A DNA stretch of 64,000 bases, taken from Halorussus limi. Its GTDB lineage: Archaea; Halobacteriota; Halobacteria; Halobacteriales; Haladaptataceae. Made by a program: the position numbers and the translations under genes. The notes under the pieces were generated by a model. It was not told the origin of the DNA. It did no database searches and saw only the letters and a program-made list of their open reading frames with translations. This document shows, one piece after another, positions 29,810 through 32,907 of the stretch. The stretch lies in contig NZ_CP096659.1 in NCBI RefSeq assembly GCF_023238205.1, positions 2,373,626 to 2,437,625 of the forward strand, in the 5' to 3' direction. Each line of letters begins with the position of its first letter. Position 1 is the first letter of the stretch.

Positions 29810-29942
29810 GGGTTGTGCCTAGTCAACGTTAAACAGGAAATAGATTACTGCGACTCCCGAGACTTGTTCGCCACCGGAGGAGTCTGGCCGGGAGTACCAT
29901 CGCTACGGCGGGGAGTAGTCCCGGATGGGTCTCGTCCCCGAC

Positions 29943-30542
29943 TCAGGCGTCACCGTCTCGCGGCGCGATGTTCTGGTTGACGTGGAACAGGTTCTCCGGG
30001 TCGTACTCCGTCTTCACCTCGACCAAGCGTTCGTAGTTGTCACCGAACAGCAATGTCGCCGGGTCCTCGGAGAGACCCGGGAAGTTGCCGTACCGGCCCG
30101 ACGCGATCGACAGCGACTCCGCCTCGCTGATTCCCTCGCGCGCCCACTCGACGTTCGCGTCGTCGTCTTCCGCGTTCTCCCAGTTAGCCTCGAACGCCAT
30201 CATGTACGGTTTGTCCCGGTGCCAGAACGCGGTCGAGTCCTGCGGAACGTCGCTGACGGCGTCGCCGAGGTGCCAGATGTCGACCGTCGATAACTTCGAG
30301 GGGGCCGACTCGTTGTAGCGAACCACGAGGTCGACGACCTCGTCGGTCAGTTCCGAGAGGTATATCGACTTCCAGTAGTACCGTAGCCCGTCCGGGTAGT
30401 CTTCGTCCAACATCGACTGCAACTCGACGAACGCCGTCGGACCGCTGAAGTCGGCTATCGGCGTCGCGCTCTCGATCAGCGGTTCGAAGACCGCCTCGGC
30501 CTTCGAGAGGTCGCCGCGGACCGAACTCTTCTCAACTTTGTC
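29943..30542 (-). pseudogene. 5'-truncated FAD-linked oxidoreductase (berberine-bridge C-terminal domain)
   Basis: The frame ends at TGA 29943 and reads leftwards from about 30530. Its C-terminal 30 residues (FGDNYERLVEVKTEYDPENL, then FHVNQNI) are the BBE signature of FAD-linked oxidases. Upstream, protein-like text continues beyond the first usable start (TTG 30420-30422) through TPIADFSGPTAFVELQSMLD back to about SSVRGDLSKAEAVFEP, then hits an in-frame TAG at 30543-30545. The FAD-binding half (several hundred residues in family members) is missing, and the DNA beyond is AT-rich, so the gene was cut by whatever brought in or deleted the adjacent segment. Some product from an internal start is possible, but it would lack the flavin domain. 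Confidence 0.85.
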
Positions 30543-31870
30543 CTATTGCTTGTGTATACTCCGGAAAATCGTGGACGAATATTTCGGATTATGCCTGGGG
30601 TGTCCCTATTCAACGCTCACGGTTTGTGGGTCTCCACCCTATATTGACACTTTCGCCGTCGCATACGCTTCATCTTTTGGCCGAATGAGAGTTCCATCAA
30701 TTCCCGACCCATAAGGATGGTTCAATAATGTATTTTGTATGTCCTGTTGTCGATTCGACGGAACATGAAACGGAGAAAATTCCTCGGCACACTCCCAACT
30801 ATTGGTGGATCGGCCCTTTTACAGAACTCGTCAGCCGCTGGTCGCGTACAATCGTCTCCCAACCCCGCACAAAAACCTTCGATGTTCTACACAACCGGCA
30901 GATGGATTACACATGAATTTCCATCGTTCAAACAAGAGCTCACGTCACTGATTACTACCATCGGAGACAACTACTATGCACTTCAAACGGCATCCGAAGT
31001 CTCTCCAAGCAAATTTGAGAAACTTGAGCAGACTGTCCGCAAAGCAGAACAGCTCATCCTTCGTACCGTTCCAAAATACTACAGTGTAGACCGTAGTCGA
31101 TTGCAATCAGCGTTCAAGAAACGACGCCAACGTAGACAAGGCGTGTTGAAAAAGTTGAAGCAATATGCCAAATATAATGAGACCGACAGAATCGCCACAC
31201 TCCTCAAAAAATATGCAGTGAAGAAGAGTCGCTATGGCTTCAAACCAAACATTCCGAGTAACAAGATAACGTGGCGGCAATACACCATGGCGGCTGAACA
31301 CCCAGACATCGACATGGGAGCATGCTGTCAAGAAAAGCCACGTATGACGAAATTCACCCCATACGTCTACCTTTCGTTTGTCTCTTCACCGTCAACGGGA
31401 GCGACACTCTACAGAAAAGAAAAAATGATAGAGGCCGAAAAGAAAGTCGCCAATGGAAAAGAGATGGTTCAACCACTCCCAGTAGATACTGCTAACACAA
31501 TTCTTGCCGGCTCATTGACGGACAAAAACGAAGATTTGATGCAAGAATGGGGAGTCGGGTCAATTGAAGTCTTCAAACAGTACGACTCCTCCTCGGCAGC
31601 ACGCAAAGCACGGGACAAACTTTTGAACCAGAGTAATGTCAACCACGAAGGAACACGCTCAAACGGCATGACTGTCGAAAGTGCCGAAAAGATCGCGTGG
31701 AAGAACCAAAGTGGTGAATGGGTGTACGCATTCTTAATTCAGTCAGAAAAATACCTTGCTCTCTCCCATGCATCTAACGTGTTCTGGGGTGATAAGACAC
31801 TACAAGGCTGGCTGTCCACAGACTAACAACTTCTAACCACTATAGGAGCTTATGTACTTGTGTACAGAAG
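30530..31870. mobile_element. AT-rich acquired segment (approximate limits)
   Basis: From about 30530 the sequence changes abruptly to AT-rich DNA (25 G/C in the 60 bases 31141-31200, against roughly two thirds G/C in flanking genes). It contains one gene and starts where the oxidoreductase is broken. The 8-mer CTTGTGTA occurs at 30549-30556 and 31857-31864, just inside the two limits, and could be a target duplication or chance. No transposase or integrase is visible. The tRNA-Gln gene lies to the right, its 3' end towards this segment. Confidence 0.6.
30765..31826 (+). CDS. Tat-exported basic protein of unknown function
   Basis: This 353-residue protein starts at ATG 30765 (an upstream ATG at 30735 is also in frame). 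The N-terminus MKRRKFLGTLPTIGGSALLQ is a twin-arginine signal (RRKFLG then a hydrophobic stretch), so export by Tat is expected; no lipobox Cys follows. The body is unusual for a halophile: rich in Lys and Arg, with FKKRRQRRQGVLKKLKQYAK and ATLLKKYAVKKSRYGFK near residues 115-165. Adjacent cysteines occur in MGACCQEKPR. Later blocks are TKFTPYVYLSFVSSPSTGAT, QEWGVGSIEVFKQYDSSSAA and EWVYAFLIQSEKYLALSHA. I recognise no family. Codon and base composition differ from neighbours, pointing to transfer. Confidence 0.8.
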   Translation: MKRRKFLGTLPTIGGSALLQNSSAAGRVQSSPNPAQKPSMFYTTGRWITHEFPSFKQELTSLITTIGDNYYALQTASEVSPSKFEKLEQTVRKAEQLILRTVPKYYSVDRSRLQSAFKKRRQRRQGVLKKLKQYAKYNETDRIATLLKKYAVKKSRYGFKPNIPSNKITWRQYTMAAEHPDIDMGACCQEKPRMTKFTPYVYLSFVSSPSTGATLYRKEKMIEAEKKVANGKEMVQPLPVDTANTILAGSLTDKNEDLMQEWGVGSIEVFKQYDSSSAARKARDKLLNQSNVNHEGTRSNGMTVESAEKIAWKNQSGEWVYAFLIQSEKYLALSHASNVFWGDKTLQGWLSTD

Positions 31871-32003
31871 GGTCACCCATGCTTGTAAATTGGTCTCGCG
31901 GTGGGTCAGAAAGTTACTGAACAAATGGCTTCGACTGGTACTCTGGAGCGCCGGCTCGCTGCAAATGTTGCCACGAAAAAGAGGATTCGTACCGTTTTGG
32001 GTA

Positions 32004-32107
32004 TAGTCCCGGGCGGATTCGAACCGCCGTCATAGGCTGTCTTCCGTAACGACCCGTAACTCGCTACGTCCAAAGGCCCATATGATTGGCCACTACACCA
32101 CGGGACT
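32004..32107 (-). tRNA. trnQ: tRNA-Gln (UUG) with a 31-nt intron
   Basis: Reading the minus strand, the gene starts AGTCCCGTGG, pairs with a CGGGACT acceptor end followed by discriminator A, and has a TTCGAATCC T-loop. The anticodon loop CTTTGGA gives anticodon UUG. Between GG (32070) and A (32038) lies a 31-nt insertion (32039-32069) one base after the anticodon, the canonical archaeal intron site. The length without it is 73 nt. A 31-nt intron in tRNA-Gln(UUG) is known from other haloarchaea. The terminal CCA is not encoded. A T5 run about 30 bases past the 3' end may terminate it. Confidence 0.93.
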
Positions 32108-32157: not shown

Positions 32158-32907
32158 TTACTTTTCGGCCGACGTTGCTGGCACGCTAACGTTTCCCGCT
32201 TCCACGTTCCGATGACAGCTTCGACAGAGCGTAACCACGTTTTCTAACGCGTGTGCCTCCTGTGGACAATCGAAATTACGAACCCGTTTGATGTGATGGA
32301 CGTCCGGATTCCGGCCGATTTCTTCGGCGGTTTCTCCGCAGTTTTGACAGGAGTAGTCGTCTCTGTCTAACGCTTCACGTCGAACGCGCCACCACTTCTC
32401 GCCGTAATCGAGTTCACCACCCTCCCACTGATGGTGGTCTTCGCTGACGACGTTTTCCGAGAGCCACGACCCGTAGCAGTCGAGGTTACAGAAAACACCG
32501 CGTTTTCTGTTTTCGACGCGAGCAGGTCGTGCTTCGATGTCCGCATCGCACTGCGTACACGAGACAGAGACTCGACTTTTGGTCGCTGGGTTTTCTGGGA
32601 GTAAGCCGGTGGCATCCTCCATACAACCTGAACAGTACGTGCCGTCTTTGTCGGACGGATAGTACCGAAACTCGGCGCCACAACACCGGCACGCTCCGGT
32701 TTCTCTCGCGTCCCTCCAGTTTCCGTTGTTCTCCCCGGCGTTCGGGTCGCAGTCGCCGCAGTACTCCAGTCGGGATTTCGGGTCGTAGAAGTCGGTACCA
32801 CAACCGTTACACGTCCGGTTCGGGAGTTTCTCGCCGTGCGCATGGCTATGGTGGATTCGGGTTCCTTGCCGGGAATCGAACGAATCTTCACACGTCGGAC
32901 AGTCCAT
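32158..32907 (-). CDS. HNH endonuclease with several zinc-finger modules
   Basis: The protein has 249 residues. From the N-terminus it shows a C2H2-like finger (CPTCEDSFDSRQGTRIHHSH), then Cys-rich modules CNGCGTDFYDPKSRLEYCGD, CRCCGAEFRYYPSDKDGTYC and a CTQC...FCNLDC unit. The C-terminal HNH domain has CQNCGETAEEIGRNPDVHHI and ENVVTLCRSCHRNVEAG, with the catalytic His in VHH and the zinc Cys pairs. Such proteins occur in haloarchaeal proviruses and mobile elements. It lies 50 bases upstream of the tRNA-Gln gene, same strand. A TATA-like TTAAAG is about 29 bases before ATG 32905-32907. Base composition is less G+C-rich than core genes. Confidence 0.88.
   Translation of the reverse strand: MDCPTCEDSFDSRQGTRIHHSHAHGEKLPNRTCNGCGTDFYDPKSRLEYCGDCDPNAGENNGNWRDARETGACRCCGAEFRYYPSDKDGTYCSGCMEDATGLLPENPATKSRVSVSCTQCDADIEARPARVENRKRGVFCNLDCYGSWLSENVVSEDHHQWEGGELDYGEKWWRVRREALDRDDYSCQNCGETAEEIGRNPDVHHIKRVRNFDCPQEAHALENVVTLCRSCHRNVEAGNVSVPATSAEK

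What the first reader, a model, noticed from the sequence alone, without database searches (positions are those of the whole stretch)
30765..31826. Unknown Lys/Arg-rich Tat-secreted protein on foreign-looking DNA
Haloarchaeal secreted proteins are normally acidic; this one has a twin-arginine signal but a strongly basic central stretch. It is a lone cargo gene with no recognisable family. Possible roles include an antimicrobial (halocin-like) protein or a surface/DNA-binding protein; none is demonstrated. This is the best candidate here for an undescribed system.
Basis: partly seen in the sequence, partly recalled or inferred. Interest (0 to 1): 0.65.

Follow-up and report, generated by a model that had tools for sequence, protein, structure and literature searches.

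The report
Basic exported protein in tRNA hotspot
This is a real but very divergent, positively charged member of a widespread unnamed family of exported haloarchaeal surface proteins, sitting alone in a stretch of chromosome beside a tRNA gene where related species carry other foreign genes; nothing found marks it as a toxin.

Summary
Window 30765-31826 (+) encodes a 353-aa protein with a twin-arginine signal, pI 9.8, mature net charge +18 (+17 in residues 110-160), in about 46% GC DNA (flanks 60-70%). The host is a Halorussus. Pfam, NCBIfam, PHROGs and PADLOC give no significant match, but it is not family-less. A profile built without it finds it (26 bits; best of 2000 shuffles 8). Profile-profile comparison aligns 269 columns at 96% probability. 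The family is an unnamed set of Tat-exported, mostly lipidated haloarchaeal proteins in 71 of 391 Halobacteria genomes; in Haloferacaceae it is syntenic with shikimate kinase. Relatives are almost all acidic; the basic stretch aligns with an ordinary helical segment of them. Models show a helical bundle plus an alpha/beta domain weakly resembling Mog1p/PsbP. The gene lies in a 2.15-kb insert behind tRNA-Gln(UUG), a Halorussus hotspot: the same gap is 0.13-7.8 kb elsewhere with unrelated cargo. No partner or immunity gene was found. Best reading: an accessory exported surface binding protein, apparently soluble because it lacks the lipobox. A halocin role is unsupported but not excluded; HalH4 could not be compared. 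Novelty lies in the charge reversal and the undescribed family.

The parts
30765..31826 (+). Basic Tat-exported protein, 353 aa (P0001)
   Evidence: homology
30765..30842 (+). Twin-arginine signal (MKRRKFLG...SSAAG), no lipobox cysteine, unlike most relatives
   Evidence: read from sequence; relatives with lipobox; two lipobox-less relatives
30864..31223 (+). N-terminal four-helix region (aa 34-153), pLDDT mostly 73-86
   Evidence: AlphaFold2 model; same element order in the Haloplanus ruber relative
31092..31244 (+). Lys/Arg-rich stretch (aa 110-160, net +17), coinciding with predicted helices 3 and 4
   Evidence: aligns with a less basic or acidic segment of relatives
31554..31808 (+). Conserved C-terminal alpha/beta region of the family (aa 264-348)
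   Evidence: (i-Evalue 4e-5); weak Mog1p/PsbP-like fold matches
30731..30741 (+). Possible archaeal TATA-like box about 30 nt before the ATG (inference, leaderless start)
   Evidence: read from sequence; not tested
29943..30542 (-). C-terminal remnant of a berberine-bridge (BBE) FAD oxidoreductase gene, cut off at about 30542
   Evidence: PF08031, E 3.5e-13; 43% identical homologue in a 550-aa open frame elsewhere in the genome
32003..32107 (-). tRNA-Gln(UUG) with a 31-nt intron; its 3' end borders the variable insert
29853..32002 (.). Variable insert (2.15 kb here) between conserved flanks: hotspot downstream of tRNA-Gln
29916..29924 (+). TAGTCCCGG, 9-nt copy of the tRNA 3' end near the left border: possible remnant attachment site (weak)

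Best explanation
The gene encodes a divergent member of an unnamed haloarchaeal family of Tat-exported cell-surface proteins, with a helical bundle followed by a small alpha/beta domain. It was acquired at a tRNA-Gln hotspot. Most relatives are lipid-anchored; this one lacks the anchor cysteine, so it is probably released or held at the surface by charge. Its helical region has become strongly basic, so the likeliest mode is electrostatic binding to an acidic partner at the cell surface (S-layer glycans, acidic proteins or extracellular DNA). Shown: ORF, charge, family relationship, hotspot. Inferred: export, fold, soluble state, binding role.
For: A profile of 31 relatives built without this protein scores it at 26.2 bits (E 5e-7); the best of 2000 shuffled sequences scores 8.0. 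Profile-profile comparison: 96.2% probability over 269 columns, both halves included. The nearest relative, on a Halorussus salilacus plasmid, aligns over most of the length at 19% identity, with the basic stretch opposite RNQQREGRKNAPEKMREYGEFGDCEKV. The family profile hits 71 of 391 Halobacteria genomes and 17 of 86 genera. In the tree it groups with the H. salilacus protein and one protein from another family (99/99), on long branches. The model of a relative is confident (pLDDT 84.8, pTM 0.84); the order of elements matches the lower-confidence model of this protein (58.6). Hotspot.
Against: Pairwise identity is only 13-21%, and the N-terminal half alone is not significant in the HMM search (4.6 bits). 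The alignment used for the model is shallow. Fold matches are weak (best E 0.017). Nothing directly shows secretion, binding or a partner. The joining of this protein with the H. salilacus one could be long-branch attraction.
Confidence: 0.55

Rival explanations
1. It is a halocin-like precursor: exported by Tat, cut by a secreted protease, releasing a basic helical fragment that damages membranes of competing haloarchaea.
For: Basic helical stretch of +17 within 51 residues. Published precedents: HalH4 and HFX_0892 of Haloferax mediterranei are secreted precursors activated by a halolysin, and the active part of HFX_0892 is an N-terminal helical fragment (PMC12893001). Accessory location in a variable hotspot.
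Against: No immunity or partner gene in the insert; none evident beside the plasmid relative. Relatives are conserved chromosomal genes near shikimate kinase, not the usual setting of a toxin. No Pfam, NCBIfam or PADLOC match. HalH4 itself could not be fetched for comparison.
Confidence: 0.1
2. It is an exported nucleic-acid-binding protein, for example one used in DNA uptake or biofilm matrix.
For: Strong positive charge clustered in two helices.
Against: No known DNA-binding domain; no linked competence or pilus genes; at about 4 M salt simple electrostatic DNA binding is weak (general knowledge).
Confidence: 0.12
3. It is a decaying xenolog from a lower-GC or lower-salt donor whose basic composition reflects ancestry, with no present function in this host.
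For: Low GC, long branch (1.95 changes per site), unusual composition; adjoining gene is a truncated remnant; absent from the 17 other Halorussus genomes searched, apart from the distant plasmid relative.
Against: The reading frame is intact over 353 codons, with signal peptide and C-terminal family residues retained.
Confidence: 0.2

Closest known systems
Unnamed haloarchaeal Tat lipoprotein family (hypothetical proteins of Halorubrum, Haloplanus ruber, Halobaculum litoreum, Haloferacaceae archaeon XH8; delineated here)
   Same: Tat signal, helical N-terminal half, conserved C-terminal block YDxxxxAxxAxxxLL...EG...W...YA...Q...W
   Different: Basic instead of acidic, no lipobox, no synteny with shikimate kinase, 13-21% identity, carried in a tRNA hotspot
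WP_253484324.1, hypothetical protein of Halorussus salilacus plasmid unnamed1
   Same: Nearest relative found; aligned over residues 47-348; also on an accessory replicon
   Different: Net charge -60 against +18, has a lipobox and Thr/Glu-rich linker, 19% identity
Mog1p/PsbP-like domains (Mog1p, PsbP, TiME, PknH sensor domain)
   Same: Weak fold similarity of the C-terminal domain, recurring in both models
   Different: No sequence similarity; fold E-values 0.017 or worse; no functional inference
Halocins (HalH4, HalC8) and the HFX_0892 precursor
   Same: Exported haloarchaeal proteins; helical part
   Different: No detected sequence link; HalH4 not available for a test; no immunity gene

Membership tests
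Unnamed haloarchaeal Tat lipoprotein family | Sequence profile match of the C-terminal block | tested here: met
   i-Evalue 4e-5, shuffles far below
Unnamed haloarchaeal Tat lipoprotein family | Sequence profile match of the N-terminal helical half | tested here: inconclusive
   HMM 4.6 bits alone; included in profile-profile alignment and in pairwise alignment to the plasmid relative
Unnamed haloarchaeal Tat lipoprotein family | Twin-arginine signal | tested here: met
   MKRRKFLG, read from sequence
Unnamed haloarchaeal Tat lipoprotein family | Lipobox cysteine (common in the family, not universal, so not taken as defining) | tested here: not met
   No Cys near the signal end; members L128 and L131 also lack it
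Halocin | Growth inhibition of related haloarchaea | not testable with these tools
   needs an assay
Halocin | Sequence relation to HalH4 or HalC8 | tested here: inconclusive
   No Pfam or NCBIfam match; HalH4 sequence not obtainable
Halocin | Linked immunity or processing gene (as in HalC8; general knowledge, not universal) | tested here: not met
   No other convincing gene in the low-GC part of the insert; none evident at the plasmid relative
Mog1p/PsbP-like fold | Significant structural match | tested here: inconclusive
   recurrent but E 0.017-0.3 at best; second-look lists filled by the helical half

The most novel reading that the evidence does not exclude
A haloarchaeal surface lipoprotein was turned into a released, strongly basic effector that acts on acidic haloarchaeal surfaces, carried as interchangeable cargo at a tRNA-Gln hotspot.
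Probability: 0.1. Interest if true: 0.65.

Novelty: new variant of a known kind. Interest (0 to 1): 0.3.

Why it matters
Exported haloarchaeal proteins are thought to need acidic surfaces to stay soluble in saturated salt. A basic member (+18) of a family whose nearest known relative is -60 is a compact test of that rule. The family is common in Haloferacaceae, often syntenic with shikimate kinase, and has no name in the libraries searched. The tRNA-Gln hotspot is a ready place to look for accessory genes in Halorussus.

Tried and rejected
Curated families: no match in Pfam or PADLOC; one sub-threshold PHROG (E 0.12) and one sub-threshold NCBIfam (E 0.056), both on the helical stretch. Viral origin: no hit in viral contigs or phages. 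First scan of genome contigs with the single protein found nothing. Search with the H. salilacus protein gave mostly signal and linker low-complexity matches and was discarded. The hit in G034 (E 0.005) is a short match to an unrelated acidic protein. PDB sequence search: nothing significant. Solved folds for the helical half: only generic four-helix bundles. Att-type repeats: only a 9-nt copy of the tRNA end, not seen in other species. HalH4 fetch failed, including a 20-nt primer pattern in 170 genomes.

Full report
Observation. Window 30765-31826 on the + strand is a complete ORF of 353 codons. The product starts MKRRKFLGTLPTIGGSALLQNSSAAG, a plausible twin-arginine signal without a lipobox cysteine. 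The mature part has 33 Lys, 18 Arg and 33 Asp+Glu, net +18, pI 9.7; residues 110-160 alone carry +17, while residues 166-353 are about neutral. GC falls to 42-54% from about 30700 to 31900, against 60-70% around.

Host. One of the genus-level genomes (G176) carries the same 342,099-bp plasmid as Halorussus salilacus NZ_CP099994.1, so the window comes from a Halorussus.

It is not family-less. Curated libraries give nothing significant. A search of 391 Halobacteria genomes with the protein found one clear relative on the H. salilacus plasmid (E 1e-6) and two weak ones that share the last 75 residues. Those weak ones are Tat lipoproteins of a kind that occurs widely. A profile made from 31 such proteins, leaving out both Halorussus ones, scores the plasmid protein at 58.5 bits and the window protein at 26.2 bits (E 5e-7), while the best of 2000 shuffled copies reaches 8.0. 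Most of this score is in the C-terminal block; the N-terminal half alone is not significant there. Profile-profile comparison of the two Halorussus proteins with six relatives aligns 269 columns at 96.2% probability. A combined profile finds members in 71 of 391 Halobacteria genomes, 17 of 86 genera. Named members come from Halorubrum, Haloplanus ruber, Halobaculum litoreum and Haloferacaceae archaeon XH8. None of 21 sequences tested has a Pfam or NCBIfam assignment.

Setting of the family. In 25 of 39 loci examined (almost all Haloferacaceae), the gene lies within a few kb of archaeal shikimate kinase (named from its sequence, not from a library search), and often next to a second small conserved protein. 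That is the pattern of a vertically kept chromosomal gene. The window protein, the plasmid protein and one protein of another family form a separate, long-branched group; the tool warns that the two Halorussus branches are long and may attract each other.

The basic stretch. It aligns with a segment that is mixed or acidic in the relatives, and the model puts it in the third and fourth helices of the N-terminal bundle. The relatives are nearly all acidic (net charge of the conserved part -58 to +1; the mature plasmid protein -60). So the charge is a change within an existing part of the protein, not a new domain.

Structure. The Haloplanus ruber relative folds with confidence (pLDDT 84.8, pTM 0.84): helices at 2-128, then an alpha/beta domain from 167. 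The window protein gives a similar order of elements with low overall confidence (58.6, pTM 0.48), though its helical part (mostly 73-86) and C-terminal part (mostly 72-83) are better. Foldseek lists Mog1p and the PknH sensor domain for one model and PsbP and the mycobacterial TiME protein for the other, never better than E 0.017. I take a Mog1p/PsbP-like fold as possible but unproven. The helical half matches only generic four-helix bundles.

Insertion site. All 18 Halorussus genomes match parts of this region. In ten other genomes whose two flanks I could place, the stretch between window 29852 and the tRNA at 32003 measures 127, 199, about 410 (twice), 980-1030 (three times), 2640, 2760 and 7820 bp, against 2150 bp here. 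By my reading of the ORFs, not searched against families, the contents differ: a PadR-like regulator, a HAD-type hydrolase, a membrane metalloprotease with a PIN-like gene, a transporter and flavoprotein cluster, and a type IIG-like restriction enzyme. The tRNA is Gln(UUG) with a 31-nt intron. The window insert also holds the C-terminal remnant of a BBE oxidoreductase, cut off at about 30542, close to where the low-GC DNA begins. A 9-nt copy of the tRNA end lies near the left border, too short to prove integrase action. No integrase gene was seen in the insert.

How it most likely works. Export by Tat is inferred from the signal and from the relatives. The absence of the lipobox suggests a soluble or charge-held protein; two distant relatives also lack it. 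The basic helices suggest binding to an acidic partner at the cell surface. None of these steps is shown. The halocin reading has precedents in which exported precursors are activated by halolysins (PMC12893001), but here there is no partner gene, no sequence match, and a family that looks like ordinary chromosomal surface proteins. HalH4 could not be fetched, so that comparison is open.

Verdict. A real, unusual gene; the unusual part is its charge, not its kind. Interest 0.3.

Noticed in passing
window 29853-32002; L049-L058: Insertion hotspot behind tRNA-Gln(UUG) in Halorussus, 0.13-7.8 kb, with different cargo in different species (apparent type IIG restriction enzyme, HAD hydrolase, membrane protease, regulator, transporter).
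   Followed up: partly
window 32004-32107; L058, L062, L064: tRNA-Gln(UUG) carries a 31-32-nt intron in the window and in 13 of 16 other Halorussus genomes checked, but is intron-less in three (G384, G024, G393).
   Followed up: yes
window 32158-32907 (-): HNH endonuclease with zinc-finger-like cysteines on the other side of the tRNA; present in some Halorussus species and absent in others; weak similarity to ZorE (E 8.5e-7).
   Followed up: partly
window 29943-30542 (-): Truncated BBE-type FAD oxidoreductase remnant; a 43% identical homologue in a 550-aa open frame lies elsewhere in the same genome.
   Followed up: yes
L140-L164: The unnamed Tat lipoprotein family is syntenic with archaeal shikimate kinase in most Haloferacaceae loci examined; the reason is unknown.
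   Followed up: partly
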